A DNA stretch of 28,288 bases, taken from positions 1-28,288 of IMG/VR virus record IMGVR_UViG_3300023222_000117; one strand, written 5' to 3'. Shown here piece by piece: positions 6,198 to 17,112 of this stretch; the stretch's first letter is position 1; every line of letters begins with the position of its first letter. The translations under genes and the position numbers were made by a program. The DNA comes from a virus. The notes beneath the pieces are model-generated. The model searched no databases and had not been told where the DNA came from. It saw only the letters and a program-made list of their open reading frames with translations.

Positions 6198-6271
6198 GAA
6201 AATATGAGATGGTTCGTCCAGAGCGCCTGGCTTTCCTTACATCATCGTATGATAGCCACTCCCATATTTCC
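6198..6271 (-). ncRNA. Structured RNA A, two-armed, shared closing stem
   Basis: An inverted repeat closes this 74-base segment: GAAAATATGAGA-TGG at 6198-6212 pairs with CCACTCCCATATTTCC at 6256-6271 with a G-U pair and a one-base bulge. Inside are two short perfect hairpins, CCAG/CTGG (6218-6230) and ATCAT/ATGAT (6241-6253), giving a three-way junction. The left arm is nearly identical to the left arm of the structured RNA at 11420. There is no protein-like frame. The minus strand is chosen because it lies downstream of the minus promoter at 6601-6629, but the fold also works on the other strand. Function unknown. Confidence 0.4.
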
Positions 6272-6282
6272 GTTTATCAAAA

Positions 6283-6389
6283 AATGAGAGTAGGCAGGCG
6301 CAATAGGCCGGGAGTCGAACCCAGGCGAACCAAGATTTTCATCTTGTCTACAGGACCGCACTGCAATCTATTAACCCACCACTCTCATT
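6283..6389 (-). ncRNA. tRNA-like RNA B (Phe-GAA-like, degenerate) in an outer stem
   Basis: Read on the minus strand, positions 6373-6301 form a tRNA-sized core. The T-arm CTGGG-TTCGACT-CCCGG is perfect (6324-6308). A D-arm GCAG/CTGT has a loop with GG. The acceptor pairs AATAG with CTATT. The anticodon position holds CAAGAT-GAAA-ATCTTG, readable as a 5-bp stem with a 6-base loop TGAAAA (Phe anticodon GAA, one base short) or as a 6-bp stem with a GNRA tetraloop. The core sits inside a further 9-bp perfect stem, AATGAGAGT (6283-6291) with ACTCTCATT (6381-6389), related to the closing stems of RNA A and the 11420 RNA. No CCA is encoded. It is probably not a normal translating tRNA. Confidence 0.5.
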
Positions 6390-6448
6390 ATTAAAAAATC
6401 AGAGCTGAAACCTATTTTGGATTTACTCAGTTGATTTTTCTTGCTTAG

Positions 6449-6586
6449 TGGAGTACGTCGGAATCGAACCGACATAACGGGACTAGCCCGTTTCCCAGGC
6501 AAACCAACTTGTAGCTATCAAGTTTTAACCTAGTCTCGGATTTAATCGCTAAATTAATCGAAAGGTCTCCATCAGACCAGCACCCC
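6449..6586 (-). ncRNA. Oversized tRNA-like RNA C
   Basis: On the minus strand a 7-bp acceptor-like stem joins GGGGTGC (6586-6580) to GTACTCC (6456-6450), followed by an A discriminator. A perfect T-arm GTCGG-TTCGATT-CCGAC lies at 6473-6457. There is a long variable-type hairpin AACGGG/CCCGTT (6492-6476) and a 6-bp arm with a 7-base loop, AACTTG-ATAGCTA-CAAGTT (6524-6506), with T before the central triplet AGC. Near the 5' end is an extra hairpin GGTC/GACC. At about 137 bases it is far longer than a class II tRNA (about 85-95), with some 40 unexplained bases between the first arm and the anticodon-like arm. It begins about 7 bases downstream of the predicted start of the minus promoter. Confidence 0.55.
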
Positions 6587-6600
6587 AATATTCTAAACTA

Positions 6601-6629
6601 AATATAACATATTATAATGATAAATGCAA
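6601..6629 (-). promoter_or_regulatory. Minus-strand promoter P1 for the RNA cluster
   Basis: On the minus strand, TTGCAT (6629-6624) is followed after 17 bases by TATATT (6606-6601), with an upstream TG giving an extended -10. The -10 region lies in a near-palindrome that is a variant of the 18-mer at the three other promoters. The predicted start (about 6594) is just before RNA C. It is divergent from P2. Confidence 0.65.
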
Positions 6630-6652
6630 GAAATAGTTTCTTCTTTTTCCCC

Positions 6653-6680
6653 TTGCTATTTCAATATAATATGTTATATT
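6653..6680 (+). promoter_or_regulatory. Promoter P2 with palindromic operator-like 18-mer
   Basis: TTGCTA (6653-6658), a 16-base spacer, then TATATT (6675-6680) with TG-T just before it. The bases also read TTG-N19-TATATTTG, the -33/-7 form known from Bacteroidota (TAnnTTTG). The perfect inverted repeat AATATAA-TATG-TTATATT (6663-6680) covers the -10. It drives the secreted FN3 gene at 6713. Confidence 0.7.
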
Positions 6681-6712
6681 TGATGATATTAATTTAATTT
6701 GAGGAGAAAAAG

Positions 6713-7129
6713 ATGAGATACATAATTGCAAGTATAATAATCCCATGGTTAGCCGCAACGGCTGGTTATGGGCAGAAAATTGACTTGAGTTGGGATAAAA
6801 ACAGCGAATCCGACTTAGGGGGGTATAGGATATATTTTAGTACAGACTCCTTGAGTCTCAATTCACTAGCTGATGTTGGCTGGGGTGAGACTGACCCAGA
6901 AGACGAGACTAGAGTTAAAGAGAGAGTCAACTGGAATTGGGAATCAAACATTCGTTATTTTGTAGGAGTGACAGCTTACGACCAGGCGGGTAATGAAAGC
7001 GGCATGTCTGTAATAATAGGCTTTGATTTCATTGATAGAGCGAGCCCTGATATAGTTGAAAATCTTGTAGTAATTAGAACCGACAAGGATGGCAATGTTA
7101 GGACTTATAGATTAGTTGAACAGGAGTGA
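6713..7129 (+). CDS. Secreted fibronectin type III domain protein
   Basis: 138 residues; ATG with GAGGAG seven bases upstream. Residues 1-20 are a signal peptide (I-I-A-S-I-I-I-P-W-L-A-A-T-A-G-Y-G-Q). Residues about 22-108 form one fibronectin III domain: I-D-L-S-W-D-K-N, then D-L-G-G-Y-R-I-Y-F-S and the closing F-V-G-V-T-A-Y-D-Q-A-G-N-E-S-G. The last 30 residues are charged. It has its own promoter (P2), separate from the tail operon. FN3 domains mediate binding to proteins or glycans; an exported one from its own transcription unit looks like a moron gene acting at the infected-cell surface. That role is inference. Confidence 0.75.
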   Translation: MRYIIASIIIPWLAATAGYGQKIDLSWDKNSESDLGGYRIYFSTDSLSLNSLADVGWGETDPEDETRVKERVNWNWESNIRYFVGVTAYDQAGNESGMSVIIGFDFIDRASPDIVENLVVIRTDKDGNVRTYRLVEQE

Positions 7130-7152
7130 AGAGATTAATCTGGTAATTGCAC

Positions 7153-7169
7153 CGTTCAAGCTCTGAACG
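7153..7169. promoter_or_regulatory. Inverted repeat upstream of the HTH gene
   Basis: CGTTCA-AGCTC-TGAACG is a perfect 6-bp inverted repeat, 24 bases before the ATG of the HTH/zinc protein gene. It could be an operator for autoregulation or an RNA hairpin near the ribosome site. No T run follows, so it is not a terminator. Confidence 0.4.
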
Positions 7170-7192
7170 CACCTTTTAAAGGATTATATGCT

Positions 7193-7588
7193 ATGAAAAC
7201 GATTGATATCACAGGTGATGATATTGCGGAGGTTAAAACCCTTCGTTGCGGGAATATCAGTTTTGGAAATATTGCAAAAGAAACCGGCATTTCTAAGGGT
7301 ACAGTATATAGGATAGTAAGCAATCGATTCCATAAAAAACCCCTCGTTCCAGCTTGCGCCATTCACGGACCCGAGTGTGAACACCGATGTAAACCCGACA
7401 AACCAAAGCGCAAACGTAAACCAGGCTGGAAAGTTTGGCTTGATATTAAATGTGATTGCGGTGGCTATTTATCTATTATTTGCTATTCAAACAAAACTGA
7501 GACTATAGAAATTGCAGAATATGTTTGTGATGATTGTGGGAAAGAAAAATCTTTTGAGCTTCAAACTAAATATAGAACCATAACTTAA
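7193..7588 (+). CDS. HTH and zinc-ribbon DNA-binding protein, candidate regulator
   Basis: 131 residues; ATG after AAAGGA. Residues about 22-46 (F-G-N-I-A-K-E-T-G-I-S-K-G-T-V-Y-R-I-V-S-N) are a clear helix-turn-helix of the resolvase/AsnC-like type. A basic linker K-P-K-R-K-R-K-P follows. Cysteines at about 55, 62 and 66 and at 87, 89, 97, 112 and 115 suggest one or two zinc sites. It sits in the P2 unit with a perfect inverted repeat just upstream. Inference: it may bind that repeat, or the 18-bp palindrome shared by the four promoters, and so set early versus late or lysogenic choice. A role as a small terminase-like HTH is less likely given the position. Confidence 0.65.
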   Translation: MKTIDITGDDIAEVKTLRCGNISFGNIAKETGISKGTVYRIVSNRFHKKPLVPACAIHGPECEHRCKPDKPKRKRKPGWKVWLDIKCDCGGYLSIICYSNKTETIEIAEYVCDDCGKEKSFELQTKYRTIT

Positions 7589-7617
7589 TATAAATACTAA
7601 CCCAAAAAGGAGATACC

Positions 7618-7722
7618 ATGAAAGCAGACCAAGAGCCGGGTGATGGGTCAGACCCGGCTGATGATTCACCAAAAGAAACCCCAACCACCTACCCAGGCTT
7701 GCCACCCTGGACTGACCGGTAA
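7618..7722 (+). CDS. 34-residue acidic, proline-rich peptide
   Basis: A short frame with a strong ribosome site (AAGGAG, six bases before ATG) and a terminator 5 bases after the stop. Seven Asp/Glu and eight Pro in 34 residues; the C-terminus reads Y-P-G-L-P-P-W-T-D-R. The coding DNA holds a perfect 8-bp inverted repeat, AGCCGGGT and ACCCGGCT, ten bases apart. No family is recognised. Small acidic phage peptides often bind host enzymes, but nothing here shows a target. Confidence 0.55.
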   Translation: MKADQEPGDGSDPADDSPKETPTTYPGLPPWTDR

Positions 7723-7726
7723 ACTT

Positions 7727-7763
7727 AAAACCGCCATTACTAAAAAGTTTTGGCGGTTTTTTT
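7727..7763 (+). terminator. Rho-independent terminator of the P2 unit
   Basis: AAAACCGCCA (7727-7736) pairs with TGGCGGTTTT (7751-7760), followed by further T residues. It ends the unit that begins at P2, 20 bases before promoter P3. Confidence 0.9.
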
Positions 7764-7782
7764 AATTAAAAAATAATAACCC

Positions 7783-7810
7783 TTGTTATTCAAATATAAT
7801 ATGTTATATT
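7783..7810 (+). promoter_or_regulatory. Promoter P3 with the same palindromic 18-mer
   Basis: TTGTTA (7783-7788), a 16-base spacer, TATATT (7805-7810) with an extended TG. AATATAATATGTTATATT at 7793-7810 is identical to P2 and is followed by TG, giving TATATTTG. It lies right after a terminator and before the long early operon. Confidence 0.7.
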
Positions 7811-7850
7811 TGATAGTGTAGGCAATAACTAACCAATCGAGGGAAACAAA

Positions 7851-8099
7851 ATGTGGTGGACAATGAAACATAACAACTCGGGGAACAAGCAACCATCAAC
7901 AACAATGTTCGATGCAGTTGGCGATGAGGTTATAACTAAATTTGGGCATTATAATGACCAGCAATTCACAGAATACAAGTGTGGTTTTATTGCTGGGAGA
8001 AAGGTTGACCCAATTATTCCGAGAACTGATTGGGGTCTGCTCGGATTTTACGACGCTAAGGCAATTAAACATTTTGAGAAAGGAGTTGCCCATGTGTAA
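7851..8099 (+). CDS. Hypothetical first gene of the early operon
   Basis: 82 residues; ATG with GAGGG seven bases upstream, about 35 bases after the predicted P3 start. It begins M-W-W-T-M-K-H-N-N-S and has a middle Y-K-C-G-F-I-A-G-R-K motif. No membrane segment and no known domain. As the first gene after an early-type promoter it may act against a host function, which is inference from position only. Its last 8 bases overlap the next gene. Confidence 0.6.
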   Translation: MWWTMKHNNSGNKQPSTTMFDAVGDEVITKFGHYNDQQFTEYKCGFIAGRKVDPIIPRTDWGLLGFYDAKAIKHFEKGVAHV

Positions 8100-8355
8100 C
8101 TGTCAATATGCAGCATGTCCGGAAGAACATCCGAAAAAGGATTGGGGGGAGATGGTCGAAGATAAACTTAGTGATTATGCGCTTGCTATTGAAACAGGCG
8201 CTTTCGATAAGGCTGATGTGTTTTACGAGCAATTAAGAAGTTTACAATACGATTACGCCGAAGAATTTAATCTTAAGATTGGCCAGAGACATTCTTTTGC
8301 TGACAGACTGATGGCTTTAGAAACATTACACTGTAGGAAAGAAGATGAATCTTAA
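8092..8355 (+). CDS. Hypothetical early protein with N-terminal Cys cluster
   Basis: 87 residues. The ATG at 8092 has AGGAG eight bases upstream; a longer frame reaches back to 7942, but that stretch is a shadow of the preceding gene. It starts M-C-N-C-Q-Y-A-A-C-P-E-E-H, a possible zinc or disulphide site. The rest is helical and acidic. No recognised family. Confidence 0.6.
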   Translation: MCNCQYAACPEEHPKKDWGEMVEDKLSDYALAIETGAFDKADVFYEQLRSLQYDYAEEFNLKIGQRHSFADRLMALETLHCRKEDES

Positions 8356-8404
8356 AGGACTAAATTGTCACGTCGAGCGAACAGATGAAAGGAGTGCGTA
8401 CTGA
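8345..8404 (+). CDS. Possible 19-residue peptide
   Basis: ATG-AAT-CTT to TGA, overlapping the previous gene by 11 bases and the next ATG by one base. It contains the AGGAG of the next gene and may serve only as a coupling leader. Weak support. Confidence 0.2.
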   Translation: MNLKGLNCHVERTDERSAY

Positions 8405-8775
8405 TGACGACGCCACATAAGCAGGCATGGCAAGCCACTTTTGTTTACAAAAATAGATATAATCAATTTGAAGGTTTATCAATGGCTTTTTGGCGAAGCT
8501 TAGGTGACGATGAGAAAGAATTGGTTAGAATATCATTAAAGGATATTGACAATTTACCGGATGAATCAGAATTAAAAAGGAGCAACAGCTTGGATAATAA
8601 GAATAACGATTACAGAATTACAAGTTTATATTTAAACACAGAAAATGACCCCCCGTACGATAAACTTCAGCGTGAGACGTTATCAGGTAACTTCTTTACT
8701 TGGGCACTGAGACGGGTTGATGAATTTTATGCATCATTAAAAGGCAAAGACAAGGATAAAATCTTAAAGGAGTAA
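8404..8775 (+). CDS. Hypothetical early protein
   Basis: 123 residues; ATG with AAAGGAG ten bases upstream. The sequence is charged and probably mixed alpha/beta: an N-terminal A-F-W-R-S-L-G-D-D-E-K-E-L segment and a C-terminal lysine-rich helix (S-L-K-G-K-D-K-D-K-I-L-K-E). No motif recognised. It is colinear with and tightly spaced to other early genes. Confidence 0.6.
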   Translation: MTTPHKQAWQATFVYKNRYNQFEGLSMAFWRSLGDDEKELVRISLKDIDNLPDESELKRSNSLDNKNNDYRITSLYLNTENDPPYDKLQRETLSGNFFTWALRRVDEFYASLKGKDKDKILKE

Positions 8776-8779
8776 AGAT

Positions 8780-8956
8780 ATGCCTAATAAATTGATTAAA
8801 CCGATAGATGCGTTAAGATTAAAGAACACCAGGCTTAATATCGTTAAAGATAATCTTGCTTTAAATCTACCTGAAAGCATAGCCAAGACGCAACACTTAC
8901 ATGAGTTAATTTTAGAGGCTCAAATAGAAGAACTTGAAAATGAACTGGCGCGGTAA
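8780..8956 (+). CDS. Small hypothetical helical protein
   Basis: 58 residues; ATG with AAAGGAG eight bases upstream and 4 bases after the previous stop. Mostly helix-forming residues, ending in an acidic amphipathic stretch (E-A-Q-I-E-E-L-E-N-E-L-A-R) that could be a short coiled coil. It is a clear coding frame by spacing and ribosome site. Function unknown. Confidence 0.6.
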   Translation: MPNKLIKPIDALRLKNTRLNIVKDNLALNLPESIAKTQHLHELILEAQIEELENELAR

Positions 8957-8967
8957 GGATTTTTTAT

Positions 8968-9189
8968 ATGAATAAGAAAAAAATTGCAACTTGGTTTAAT
9001 TCCTTATCAGAGAAAAATAAGCAAAAATTTGCAAAAGATTTTTTTAATAAGCAATACGGTGATTTGACCAACATGGAAGTATCTATAATCTATAATCAAA
9101 TGCACATCCCCAGGCAATGTCCAGAACATCCAGAGTCAGATTCAGAAATAAAAGAATCTTGGGAAAGGCATTGCAATGACATACAATAA
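8968..9189 (+). CDS. Small hypothetical protein
   Basis: 73 residues; ATG preceded by AAGGA eight bases upstream. A basic N-terminus (M-N-K-K-K-I-A-T-W-F-N-S-L) and an acidic C-terminus with two Cys (Q-C-P-E-H-P and H-C-N-D). It shares the C-P-E-H-P string with the protein at 8092 (C-P-E-E-H-P), perhaps by chance. Between this gene and the annealing-protein gene are about 100 bases with only a 15-codon frame at 9226 and no clear promoter. Confidence 0.55.
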   Translation: MNKKKIATWFNSLSEKNKQKFAKDFFNKQYGDLTNMEVSIIYNQMHIPRQCPEHPESDSEIKESWERHCNDIQ

Positions 9190-9292
9190 CATATCAATAC
9201 CCAATGTTCTTTAGAGAAAGTTTCTATGAGTAAGCCATGCATGGTATTCACCGAGATTGCAACTAATTTTTAAATTGAGGAGAAAAAGAGAA

Positions 9293-9979
9293 ATGAGTGA
9301 AATGTTAGAAATCCCGGTTAGGGTAGATAATCTAAAAATATGGGATGCCGTAAAAACTCCCCCACCTGAAGCAATGAAAAAGATTGCAGGCGGTAGGCTT
9401 TCCGGCATGACCGACATTAGCCCACAATGGCGCATTAAAATAATGACTGAGATGTTCGGTGCCGTTGGCTTTGGATGGACATACGAAATTGAAAAACAGT
9501 GGCTGGAAAAACTTGAAGGTGTGTCCGATGTGTGTGCATTCTCTAATATCAGATTGAAGTACAAGGCTGATGGTGAAAAAGGTGAATGGTCTGAATGGAT
9601 TCAAGGTACAGGTGGAAGTAAGATAGCTACTATGGAAAAAGGCGGTTTACACGTTTCCGATGAATGCTACAAAATGGCAACCACGGACGCTTTGAGCGTA
9701 GCAATGAAAGCTATCGGAGTTGGGGCAGATGTTTACTTGGGTCAGGTTGACCACAGCAGTAAGTACTCAGAGAAGAAAGGTAATCCTGTGCCGGCAAATA
9801 ATTTCATCAAACCAGAAACAGTGCAAAAGATAAAAAAAGAAATGAAAAAATCCGAAGACCCTGAATTGTTATGGGAGTCTGTGAGAGGTGATTTTAAAAA
9901 GGTTGATGACATCTCTGTTGAGAAAGTTAAGCAAATCAGCAACTCAATCGTTGAGTATTTGAAAAATGAAAACAGTTGA
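9293..9979 (+). CDS. Rad52/22-like single-strand annealing protein
   Basis: 228 residues; ATG at 9293 has GAGGAG about ten bases upstream, better than the TTG 36 bases earlier. Residues about 40-150 hold the Rad52/22-type core used by phage recombinases: I-S-P-Q-W-R-I-K-I-M-T-E-M-F-G, the F-G-W-T-Y strand, G-T-G-G-S-K near 106, and E-C-Y-K-M-A-T-T-D-A-L-S-V-A-M-K-A-I-G-V-G-A-D-V-Y. The C-terminus is a charged tail. These proteins anneal complementary single strands during recombination-dependent replication. The next gene is a YqaJ-type exonuclease overlapping by 14 bases, the usual exonuclease/annealase pairing. Confident on role, less on exact subfamily (Rad52, Sak or ERF). Confidence 0.75.
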   Translation: MSEMLEIPVRVDNLKIWDAVKTPPPEAMKKIAGGRLSGMTDISPQWRIKIMTEMFGAVGFGWTYEIEKQWLEKLEGVSDVCAFSNIRLKYKADGEKGEWSEWIQGTGGSKIATMEKGGLHVSDECYKMATTDALSVAMKAIGVGADVYLGQVDHSSKYSEKKGNPVPANNFIKPETVQKIKKEMKKSEDPELLWESVRGDFKKVDDISVEKVKQISNSIVEYLKNENS

Positions 9980-10595
9980 CGCGGAGGTTGGGTCGGACCT
10001 ATGGATATATTTACATATTGGCAAGGTTTCCGGCCATGGGTTTAAAAAGATTTTAGCTAAGGGCAACGGTAAAACTAGAGCCTCATATTTAAAGCAGCTT
10101 ATCACAGAAAGGCAAACTGGTATCTCTTCTATGCCTTGCCAAGAAGTTTTGCAGAACAATCGCGGAGCTTTATTAGAGCCGGAGTTTATATCAAGATATG
10201 AATCAGGGTGGGATATTGAAGAAACTGGCAAAGTTGTAATTATTAATGACGATATAGTTTTAAGTCCGGACATATTGAATTGTAATTTATTCGAAGAAAG
10301 ACGGAGCGGGGCAGAGATTAAGTGTTATGGAATCGATAAACATAATAAACTAGATGGCATGTTCCCAGGCGATAAGGCACAGGTTCAAGGCTACATCGGA
10401 TATATGGAGGCCGAGTTCTGGGATTATATCCTTGGTCATCCTGAAGCAGAAGAGGAATATAAATGCTTTCGGGTTCAACCCGACCAAGAATACATAGACA
10501 ACCTAAAAAATGAAGTCACCCGGTTTGTTGAAGAACTTAAGACCGGCGCCGACTTGGAAGGTAAGTTAAAAGAATCAATTGAGGAGGAGAAATGA
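9966..10595 (+). CDS. YqaJ/lambda-exo-like 5'-3' exonuclease
   Basis: 209 residues. The YqaJ nuclease signatures are in order: G-S-D-L-W near residue 9, R-G-A-L-L-E-P-E-F with Glu at about 71, S-P-D at about 100-102, A-E-I-K (Glu 117, Lys 119) and Q-V-Q-G-Y-I-G-Y-M near 139-147. These match the PD-(D/E)xK core and the Gln motif of lambda exonuclease relatives, which chew one strand of double-stranded ends for the partner annealase upstream. It overlaps that gene by 14 bases and the next by 4, so expression is coupled. Length fits the family (about 200-230). Confidence 0.85.
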   Translation: MKTVDAEVGSDLWIYLHIGKVSGHGFKKILAKGNGKTRASYLKQLITERQTGISSMPCQEVLQNNRGALLEPEFISRYESGWDIEETGKVVIINDDIVLSPDILNCNLFEERRSGAEIKCYGIDKHNKLDGMFPGDKAQVQGYIGYMEAEFWDYILGHPEAEEEYKCFRVQPDQEYIDNLKNEVTRFVEELKTGADLEGKLKESIEEEK

Positions 10596-10849
10596 AGGAA
10601 TTTTTACTTGATTTGACGGAAGTAAAAGAAGAGAATCGAGATAATTACCATACAGTTGCTTATGATATTGGAAAAATAAAATGCTGTCTAGGTAAACATG
10701 AATGTGATTTTGATTTAATTGAAGAAAGTATCGAGAAGAAATATTTAAATAAACTTCAAAATAAAAAGTCTGAATTCAATGAGCATAAACCCACAGGTAC
10801 GTCCCTGAATACAATTCCAGTTGGGGCTAAGATAACGAGAATAAAATGA
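10592..10849 (+). CDS. Small hypothetical protein in recombination module
   Basis: 85 residues; ATG overlaps the exonuclease stop (ATGA) and has GAGGAGGAG upstream. It is acidic with one Cys pair (K-C-C-L-G-K-H-E-C-D) that might bind zinc. The C-terminus P-T-G-T-S-L-N-T-I-P-V-G-A-K-I resembles a short beta tail. No family recognised. Coupling to the exonuclease hints at a recombination accessory. Confidence 0.55.
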   Translation: MKEFLLDLTEVKEENRDNYHTVAYDIGKIKCCLGKHECDFDLIEESIEKKYLNKLQNKKSEFNEHKPTGTSLNTIPVGAKITRIK

Positions 10850-10914
10850 AGCCAGGCGTACCAATACTAATAAAATCCGGCAAGATAACAAACTTCAATG
10901 AAGGAGAAAGATGA
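10846..10914 (+). CDS. Possible 22-residue coupled peptide
   Basis: ATG overlaps the previous stop (ATGA) and its own TGA overlaps the next ATG (ATGA). Its 3' end includes the AAGGAG for the next gene. Sequence M-K-P-G-V-P-I-L-I-K-S-G-K. It fills an otherwise empty gap with perfect overlaps at both ends, so it is probably translated, but it may only be a coupler. Confidence 0.35.
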   Translation: MKPGVPILIKSGKITNFNEGER

Positions 10915-11243
10915 CTGAAGAAATAAAAGATGTTAGTGATGCATTGCAGTTTCTGGCTAATACAGATGAAAGCGCAGCCCAAGCAATCGCTTACGCTGAG
11001 TATTTGAAGCGTTCTAAGGATACCAAAAAGGCTGTCGTAAAAATGATTTCAACGTTAAGTAGTGACGCAGCAAGAGAAACCGAGGCTTTAGCAAGTGAAG
11101 AATACAAAGAGCACTTGATTAAACTAAAGGATGCTGAATCTGATGCTTTGATTCTCAAAAACAAAAGGCATACTTTGGAGTTGAGAATTGAAATTTGGCG
11201 TTCAAAGAATGCAAATAGACGGCAAGCAGGGGGTAACATATGA
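10911..11243 (+). CDS. Helical early protein of recombination module
   Basis: 110 residues; ATG with AAGGAG upstream. Nearly all helix: residues about 25-105 are rich in Ala, Glu, Lys and Leu with heptad-like spacing (Y-A-E-Y-L-K-R-S-K-D-T-K-K-A-V, then L-I-K-L-K-D-A-E-S-D-A-L-I), so a coiled coil is likely. Proteins of this appearance are common next to annealase/exonuclease pairs in phages, without assigned function. It overlaps the following gene by 4 bases. Confidence 0.6.
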   Translation: MTEEIKDVSDALQFLANTDESAAQAIAYAEYLKRSKDTKKAVVKMISTLSSDAARETEALASEEYKEHLIKLKDAESDALILKNKRHTLELRIEIWRSKNANRRQAGGNI

Positions 11244-11413
11244 AGCTATTAGAGATAGAAGGCAATTCCAACGTAGTGAACTTTATCCGGGTTCACACAG
11301 ATGAACTGTATTCAGGATATAAGGCCTTTGTTAAGCTTTTCGGAAAGTATAACAATCCACATGAATTTATTCAAATAATCGCTGAGCTTGAATCTGGTTT
11401 TACTAAGAATTAG
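11240..11413 (+). CDS. Small hypothetical protein
   Basis: 57 residues; ATG overlaps the previous stop and has a GGGGG run six bases upstream. It reads M-K-L-L-E-I-E-G-N-S-N-V-V-N-F-I-R-V and ends in an amphipathic helix (F-I-Q-I-I-A-E-L-E-S-G-F). A well-formed frame in the operon, and the last before the structured RNA at 11420. Similar short proteins in other phages display as KTSC-like folds (I-R-x-V-x-Y-x-x-Y); the order here is similar but not decisive. Confidence 0.55.
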   Translation: MKLLEIEGNSNVVNFIRVHTDELYSGYKAFVKLFGKYNNPHEFIQIIAELESGFTKN

Positions 11414-11419
11414 TTCATT

Positions 11420-11543
11420 GAAAATATGAGAGTGGCGGAAACGCAGTTAAACGGGTGAAAAGGCATTGCCCGGTACGGTTGAAAAATACCGGTAACACTC
11501 AAAAGTATTAGGCCGACGATACGAATTGTACTCTCATATTTTC
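11420..11543 (+). ncRNA. Structured RNA E1, 14-bp closing stem, multibranched
   Basis: A perfect 14-bp inverted repeat, GAAAATATGAGAGT (11420-11433) and ACTCTCATATTTTC (11530-11543), encloses 96 bases with several helices: GCG-GAAA-CGC with a GNRA tetraloop (11435-11444); GGGTG/CACTC (11453-11457 with 11496-11500) enclosing GGC/GCC and CGGTA/TACCG (11471-11475 with 11487-11491); and GTAT/ATAC (11505-11508 with 11519-11522). The closing stem also reads as a tRNA acceptor (GAGAGTG with TACTCTC), but no T-arm is present. No protein frame crosses it. It lies inside the early operon, so it is probably processed from or acts within that transcript. Its left arm matches RNA A. Confidence 0.55.
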
Positions 11544-15540: not shown

Positions 15541-15568
15541 TTGCAGGTTAAATATAATATGTTATATT
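15541..15568 (+). promoter_or_regulatory. Promoter P4 with the palindromic 18-mer
   Basis: TTGCAG (15541-15546), a 16-base spacer, TATATT (15563-15568) with TG in front. AATATAATATGTTATATT (15551-15568) is identical to P2 and P3, but the following bases are GT, so the -7 box is TATATTGT. It precedes the packaging-region operon. Confidence 0.65.
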
Positions 15569-15577
15569 GTAGGTGTG

Positions 15578-16743: not shown

Positions 16744-17016
16744 ATGACCAAGAAAGAAAAAGAAATAGTAGCTAAAGCACTAGACCAAGCAAGGAAAGCA
16801 GTCAAGAGGTTTAATTCACCTGTTCATATGGTTACTGGTGGAGCCATGTGTGACGTACTGAAAGATATTGATTCACTTCTGTCTGTGTTATTCGTAGAGT
16901 CCGAAAAGAAGGCAGACAAATCTGAGTCCATACTCTTGAAAAAGACTACCCAAAAGTCGCCTGAGTGGTGTGGTCGAAGCAATCGTTTAGCAGGATATAT
17001 ATATTTATTGCGATGA
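16744..17016 (+). CDS. Small hypothetical protein
   Basis: 90 residues; ATG preceded by GAAGTAAGCAC, a moderate site. Helical N-terminus (K-K-E-K-E-I-V-A-K-A-L-D-Q-A-R-K-A-V-K-R), a middle V-T-G-G-A-M-C-D-V-L-K-D-I-D, and a basic end. No recognised domain. It stops immediately before the structured RNA at 17017. Confidence 0.5.
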   Translation: MTKKEKEIVAKALDQARKAVKRFNSPVHMVTGGAMCDVLKDIDSLLSVLFVESEKKADKSESILLKKTTQKSPEWCGRSNRLAGYIYLLR

Positions 17017-17112
17017 AATCCCCCCTGCTGTAGCTTGGTACTGTTGTGGTTGATAACCAAAAGGGTAAGCCTAATCAGCTTTGCCTACCGTGCCAAGTTA
17101 CAGCAGGGGATT
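17017..17112 (+). ncRNA. Structured RNA E2, long closing stem with internal hairpins
   Basis: The segment AATCCCCCCTGCTGTAGCTTGG (first part at 17017-17030) pairs with CCAAGTTACAGCAGGGGATT (17093-17112) over about 19 pairs with a two-C bulge and one mismatch. The enclosed 54 bases hold TGGTT-GAT-AACCA (17047-17059) and AAGC-CTAATCA-GCTT with a 7-base loop (17067-17081), flanked by GGTA/TACC. No T run follows, so it is not a terminator. It lies in a gap without any coding frame, just upstream of a TTG-start gene whose ribosome site is 12 bases further on. It could be a regulatory leader, an RNase site or a stand-alone RNA. Confidence 0.5.

What the first reader, a model, noticed from the sequence alone, without database searches (positions are those of the whole stretch)
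6198..11543. A family of structured RNAs sharing an ATGAGAG-type closing stem
Three non-coding segments (6198-6271, 6283-6389, 11420-11543) are each closed by inverted repeats built on (A)ATATGAGAG or AATGAGAGT, with small hairpins inside, including GNRA-type loops (GCG-GAAA-CGC at 11435; CAAGAT-GAAA-ATCTTG on the minus strand at 6346-6331). The left arms at 6198 and 11420 share GAAAATATGAGA exactly. Conserved ends with different interiors suggest a processing signal or a common protein-binding stem, with the interior as the variable payload. I know no described family with this architecture.
Basis: partly seen in the sequence, partly recalled or inferred. Interest (0 to 1): 0.8.

Follow-up and report, generated by a model that had tools for sequence, protein, structure and literature searches.

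The report
Phage operon of tRNA-like structured RNAs
A stretch of an uncultured phage that codes for no obvious protein appears to be a small operon of folded RNAs, two of which imitate transfer RNA and several of which share the same clamp-like end stem; no RNA family catalogued in Rfam matches them, and they may act as tRNA mimics during infection.

Summary
Elements A (6198-6271), B (6283-6389) and D (11420-11543) are structured, intergenic and share near-identical ends (AAAUAUGAGAGUGG ... ACUCUCAUAUUU), while their interiors show no similarity. A and B read on the minus strand, D on the plus strand. It also missed element C (6449-6586, minus), a 138-nt cloverleaf with alanine-type G3:U70/A73, T arm and an extra arm. 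The tRNA-like descriptor hits only C and B; shuffled windows average 0.02 hits. C, B and A lie downstream of a promoter/operator that the phage repeats before three plus-strand gene groups. A further structured element, E (17022-17109), lies elsewhere. The closing stem recurs in an intergenic element of one unrelated phage contig. Rfam has no match, no homologues of B or C were found, and RNA production is not shown. Best reading: an RNA-only operon of tRNA mimics built like bacterial Y RNAs (basal stem plus exchangeable module) but lacking the Ro60/Rsr site. A decoy function is inferred.

The parts
6600..6630 (-). promoter/operator of the C-B-A unit: CTTG ... TATAATATGTTATATTT
   Evidence: 17-mer exact here, at 6665 (+) and 7795 (+), one mismatch at 15553 (+); 7 matches with up to 3 mismatches against 0.43 expected; CTTG at constant spacing in all four
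6449..6586 (-). element C: tRNA-like RNA, 138 nt; acceptor GGGGUGC/GUACUCC with G3:U70 and A73, D arm 6564-6578, extra hairpin, long arm with loop AUAGCUA, variable-arm-like hairpin, T arm 6457-6473
   Evidence: fold z=-3.1; tRNA helices pair probability 0.86-1.0, extra hairpin 0.6-0.95; descriptor hit; ARAGORN with introns allowed c[6448,6586]
6393..6440 (-). AU-rich hairpin followed by a U run between C and B, possible terminator or spacer
   Evidence: fold; not tested against shuffles
6283..6389 (-). element B: shared closing stem (6283-6291/6381-6389) continued into a 22-bp interrupted helix, tRNA-like interior: D arm 6349-6365, GAAA-capped arm 6331-6346, T arm 6308-6324
   Evidence: fold z=-4.8; descriptor hit; closing stem
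6198..6271 (-). element A: shared closing stem with a bulged G, interior of small hairpins, not tRNA-like
   Evidence: fold z=-2.8 on minus, -1.2 on plus; ends shared with D
11420..11543 (+). element D: perfect 14-bp closing stem, GCG-GAAA-CGC hairpin, hairpin CGGGUGA/UUGCCCG and weaker inner hairpins; begins shortly after the stop codon of the ORF 11240-11413
   Evidence: fold z=-4.2; pair probabilities; IR I7. Sense strand taken from the shared ends and the direction of neighbouring genes
17022..17109 (+). element E: separate structured element, 20-bp closing stem of different sequence with two inner hairpins, begins shortly after the stop codon of the ORF ending at 17016
   Evidence: fold z=-6.7, lowest energy for its GC in the window, IR I2; membership in the same family not shown

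Best explanation
Positions 6198-6586 on the minus strand are an RNA-only transcription unit (order C, B, A) behind a promoter that the phage also places before three plus-strand gene groups. Its products are structured RNAs. C is a tRNA-like RNA with alanine-type acceptor features and added arms. B is a tRNA-like module whose decoding loop is replaced by a GAAA tetraloop, mounted on a long 5'/3' helix. A, B and the separate element D share the sequence of that end stem, which acts as an end clamp or protein handle, with the interior as exchangeable module. The tRNA-like modules most likely bind a tRNA-recognising factor of the host and serve as decoy or scaffold rather than in translation. Shown by computation: structures, tRNA likeness, shared stem, repeated promoter. 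Inferred: that the RNAs are made and stable, that the stem is a handle, and the decoy or scaffold role (about half of the confidence given).
For: Folds better than shuffles; exactly two tRNA-like descriptor hits in the window, both here, against 0.02 per shuffled window, none of 300 with two (descriptor written after seeing them); tRNA helices of C well determined; GG in both D loops and UUCRA in both T loops, as needed for an elbow (sequence); ends shared, interiors not; repeated promoter/operator; stem recurs in an intergenic element of an unrelated phage contig; no convincing ORF. Phage tRNAs as supply or decoy against tRNA-cutting defence are described in PMC13096335; the stem-plus-tRNA-module plan of bacterial Y RNA in PMC8394870.
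Against: No expression data; no homologues of B or C, hence no covariation; A and D are not tRNA-like, so the tRNA mimicry covers two of the elements only; the best single fold of B shifts the T-arm pairing (canonical T arm costs 2.2 kcal/mol); host and partner unknown; A/B end similarity alone is not significant.
Confidence: 0.5

Rival explanations
1. C and B are decaying tRNA genes: remnants of a former phage tRNA array with insertions and lost anticodon loops, without present function.
For: Canonical T arms and acceptor in C; ARAGORN accepts C only as a tRNA with a 53-nt insert; the anticodon loop is missing in B.
Against: Helices of C and B are intact and fold much better than shuffles; B carries a long 5'/3' helix that tRNA genes lack; the same end stem occurs in A and D, which are not tRNA-like; a repeated phage promoter stands directly before C.
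Confidence: 0.2
2. The shared stem is an RNA processing, termination or mRNA-stability signal (for instance an RNase III site or AU-rich terminator), and the interiors are incidental.
For: D, E and the L044 element start just after stop codons within gene runs; U runs follow the stems of A, B and D; E has a 20-bp helix.
Against: The terminator scan does not call A, B or D; it does not explain the tRNA-like interiors of B and C; C has no such stem.
Confidence: 0.15
3. C is a working, unusual tRNA or small tmRNA-like RNA that is charged with alanine and used in translation.
For: G3:U70, A73, intact T arm, a 7-nt loop with U33 and AGC.
Against: Position 37 is U, an extra hairpin sits between the D arm and the anticodon-like arm, no CCA is encoded; neither ARAGORN by default nor Rfam calls a tRNA or tmRNA; AGC is not the usual bacterial alanine anticodon (own knowledge).
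Confidence: 0.08

Closest known systems
Bacterial Y RNA (YrlA)
   Same: Length 90-150 nt, long 5'/3' stem, tRNA-like domain with D, T and acceptor arms (PMC8394870); conserved stem with variable inner part (PMC4726728). B fits this plan.
   Different: No bulged-cytidine Ro60/Rsr site in the stem, no TROVE gene in the record, no Rfam match; A and D lack a tRNA-like domain.
Phage-encoded tRNAs used against tRNA-cutting defences (T5, T6)
   Same: tRNA-like genes in a phage, expressed during infection; proposed decoy or supplement role (PMC13096335).
   Different: Those are canonical tRNAs able to decode; B has no anticodon loop and C has extra arms; no defence link shown here.
C4 antisense RNA of phages P1 and P7
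   Same: Small phage RNA whose precursor is cut by RNase P (reference in PMC4919922).
   Different: No Rfam match to any family here; no antisense target sought or found.
tmRNA
   Same: Alanine-type acceptor (G3:U70) and T arm as in C.
   Different: Only 138 nt; C has a D stem; no Rfam or ARAGORN tmRNA call; the one beta_tmRNA match is a 17-nt T-arm fragment of 11.4 bits.
T4 stable RNAs of the tRNA cluster (species 1 and 2)
   Same: Non-tRNA stable RNAs of similar size beside phage tRNA genes (own knowledge).
   Different: Not compared here; no paper on them found in the library.

Membership tests
Bacterial Y RNA (YrlA) | Long stem pairing the 5' and 3' ends | tested here: met
   A, B and D
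Bacterial Y RNA (YrlA) | tRNA-like domain with D and T arms | tested here: met
   B only; A and D do not show it
[quoted passage not shown] the bulged C is kept in bacterial Y RNA, PMC4030889) | tested here: not met
   D stem is 14 bp without bulge; interruptions elsewhere are G (A) and U/C in the 3' strand (B), no matching site. A pattern recalled from memory (GNCGAANNG) has only chance matches, none in the elements
Bacterial Y RNA (YrlA) | Rsr (TROVE) gene in the same genome | tested here: inconclusive
   No PF05731 match in the window, L044 or L033 records; all are fragments and the host is unknown
tRNA | Match to the tRNA covariance model or ARAGORN by default | tested here: not met
   No RF00005 match, no ARAGORN call by default
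tRNA | 7-nt anticodon loop with U33 | tested here: inconclusive
   B: not met, GAAA tetraloop. C: AUAGCUA has U33 but U37, within a long arm
tmRNA | tmRNA covariance model or ARAGORN tmRNA call | tested here: not met
Retron RNA | Reverse transcriptase gene beside the RNA | tested here: inconclusive
   No reverse transcriptase among the window proteins scanned; not all ORFs were scanned and the record is a fragment
Integron attC site | GTTRRRY / RYYYAAC core ends | tested here: not met
   Ends read AUAUGAGAGUGG / ACUCUCAUAU; by inspection

The most novel reading that the evidence does not exclude
A phage-borne class of modular RNAs in which one conserved end stem, shared by unrelated phages, carries interchangeable modules, some of them non-decoding tRNA mimics that engage tRNA-recognising host factors.
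Probability: 0.2. Interest if true: 0.8.

Novelty: new variant of a known kind. Interest (0 to 1): 0.55.

Why it matters
If the RNAs are made, phages carry tRNA imitations that default tRNA finders and Rfam miss, built on a common end stem with exchangeable interiors. That would give concrete candidates for RNA decoys against tRNA-cleaving defences and for phage counterparts of bacterial Y RNA.

Tried and rejected
Rfam at gathering scores and at E up to 10: nothing relevant. ARAGORN by default: nothing. Relatives: by the annealing protein only distant phages; by portal and terminase only L033, a 6-kb contig without the RNA region; by major head protein none; by terminase in bacterial genomes none; by the 354-aa protein and the Fn3-like protein no related RNA region recognised. 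Closing-stem scan 1 of viral contigs found nothing, but its gap range (60-90) was too short for D (95) and it required CTCTCATATT, which B lacks, so it is uninformative. Scan 2 gave L044 and three hits inside open frames. Scan of bacterial genomes: four hits in or across coding frames, taken as chance. blastn of the elements against phages and plasmids: chance-level pieces, some of them T arms of annotated tRNAs. Set aside: mobile element with terminal repeats (interiors unrelated, no target duplication seen by eye), attC, retron, known ribozymes (no Rfam match). The 61-aa plus-strand ORF over B (6209-6394) has only an E=0.035 family match.

Full report
What was checked. The window is a whole IMG/VR record of 28,288 bases, a linear phage fragment, with terminase, portal, major head protein, a recombination protein pair and a replication initiator. 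D (11420-11543) has a perfect 14-bp closing stem, the only perfect pair among arms of 13 nt or more within 160 bases. Against dinucleotide shuffles B folds at z=-4.8 on the minus strand, D at -4.2 (plus) and -4.3 (minus), A at -2.8 on minus but only -1.2 on plus.

The shared ends. Read A and B on the minus strand and D on the plus strand, the 5' ends AAAUAUGRGAGUGG and the 3' ends CUCUCAUAUUUU agree. Shuffle p-values are 0.0005 at each end for A/D, 0.002 and 0.0055 for B/D, 0.08 and 0.16 for A/B; interiors show no similarity, p=0.6-0.95. The two ends of one element pair with each other, so these are not independent tests.

tRNA likeness of B. On the minus strand B has CUGGG-UUCGACU-CCCGG, a canonical T arm, a D arm with GG in its loop, and CAAGAU-GAAA-AUCUUG where an anticodon arm would be, all on a 22-bp helix with two single-base interruptions. 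The best fold shifts the T-arm pairing by a few bases; forcing the canonical T arm costs 2.2 kcal/mol.

Element C, not in the finding. On the minus strand from 6586 to 6449: acceptor GGGGUGC/GUACUCC with a G3:U70 wobble and A73 (alanine identity in known tRNAs, own knowledge), D arm GGUCU-GAUGG-AGACC, an extra hairpin, a long arm ending in the 7-nt loop AUAGCUA, a variable-arm-like hairpin and T arm GUCGG-UUCGAUU-CCGAC. Pair probabilities are 0.86-1.0 for the tRNA helices and 0.6-0.95 for the extra hairpin. A descriptor (T arm with UUCRA loop, adjoining 7-nt acceptor strand with at least 6 pairs, D-like stem 1-3 nt on) hits the window twice, at C and B; shuffled windows average 0.02 hits and none of 300 has two. 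The descriptor was written after seeing C and B. ARAGORN finds nothing by default and, with introns allowed, one tRNA at c[6448,6586] with a 53-nt insert. Rfam has no match.

A transcription unit. Thirteen bases before C the minus strand carries TATAATATGTTATATTT, preceded by CTTG. The 17-mer is exact again at 6665 (+) and 7795 (+), with one mismatch at 15553 (+), each before plus-strand genes; up to 3 mismatches give 7 matches against 0.43 expected, and CTTG stands at constant spacing in all four. So C, B and A probably form an RNA-only unit, divergent from the gene at 6713 and switched with other operons. The time of expression is not known. The 61-aa plus-strand ORF over B has only a weak family match (E=0.035).

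Element E. 17022-17109 (plus) has a 20-bp closing stem and two inner hairpins, z=-6.7, the lowest energy for its GC in the window. Its stem sequence is different, so it is not counted in the family. D, E and the L044 element below each begin within a few bases after a stop codon.

Relatives. The only close relative of the phage found is L033, 6 kb, terminase 91% identical, without the RNA region. A viral-contig scan for TGAGAGTGG-N(75-105)-CTCTCATWTT gave four hits. Three lie in open frames; L044:4498-4608 is intergenic, next to a primase-helicase gene, in a phage with no protein match to the window. On its minus strand it has AAAAUAUGAGAGUG, 14 bases identical to D, a closing stem of about 10 bp, then a small GCG hairpin as in D, and folds at z=-4.3. 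I had no control scan, and by rough arithmetic the pattern alone could occur by chance, so I call it a probable second occurrence. Across A, B, D and L044 the pair just outside AUGAGAG is U-A in three and A-U in B, and two inner pairs vary on one side; this fits pairing but is too little to count as covariation. The bacterial-genome scan gave only hits in or across coding frames.

How it most likely works. B fits the description of bacterial Y RNA: 90-150 nt, a long 5'/3' stem and a tRNA-like domain (PMC8394870), with a conserved stem and variable inner part (PMC4726728). The Ro60/Rsr site, a helix with a bulged cytidine and a bulge opposite, is absent and no TROVE gene is in the record, so it is not filed as a Y RNA; it may still work like one. 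Phage tRNAs have been proposed as decoy or supplement against tRNA-cutting defence (PMC13096335). A tRNA-like module without a decoding loop suits a decoy or scaffold better than translation. I put 0.5 on an RNA-only unit of tRNA mimics with a shared handle, about half of that on the decoy role.

Limits. No expression data, no homologues of B or C, no known host or partner. The claim falls if relatives show broken stems or coding sequence, or if no RNA is made.

Noticed in passing
window 6600-6616 (-), 6665-6681 (+), 7795-7811 (+), 15553-15569 (+): Repeated near-palindromic promoter/operator TATAATATGTTATATTT, preceded by CTTG at constant spacing; likely regulon of this phage.
   Followed up: partly
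window 17022-17109 (+): Element E, the strongest fold of the window for its GC: 20-bp closing stem with two inner hairpins, no Rfam match.
   Followed up: partly
L009:3482-3571, same in L011, L013, L016: Unannotated tRNA-like element near early recombination genes of other phages: 7-bp acceptor GGCGGUG/CGCCGCC with A73 and two T-arm-like hairpins; no Rfam or ARAGORN call (L009 and L016 scanned with Rfam).
   Followed up: partly
L030, T arm at about 19919 (+): Short stretch with a T arm followed by a 7-nt strand that can pair upstream, possibly a miniature tRNA-like element.
   Followed up: no
L002:14938-15013, L007:8665-8740: ARAGORN tRNA with a four-base anticodon cccc in two phage contigs.
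   Followed up: no
window about 16709 and 17001 (+): ATATTTATTGCG occurs at the ends of two neighbouring small ORFs, whose proteins both end in YLLR.
   Followed up: no
L044:4400-4460: Next to the L044 element lies a hairpin closed by GGGGGTAC/GTACCCCC, a possible terminator or further structured RNA.
   Followed up: no
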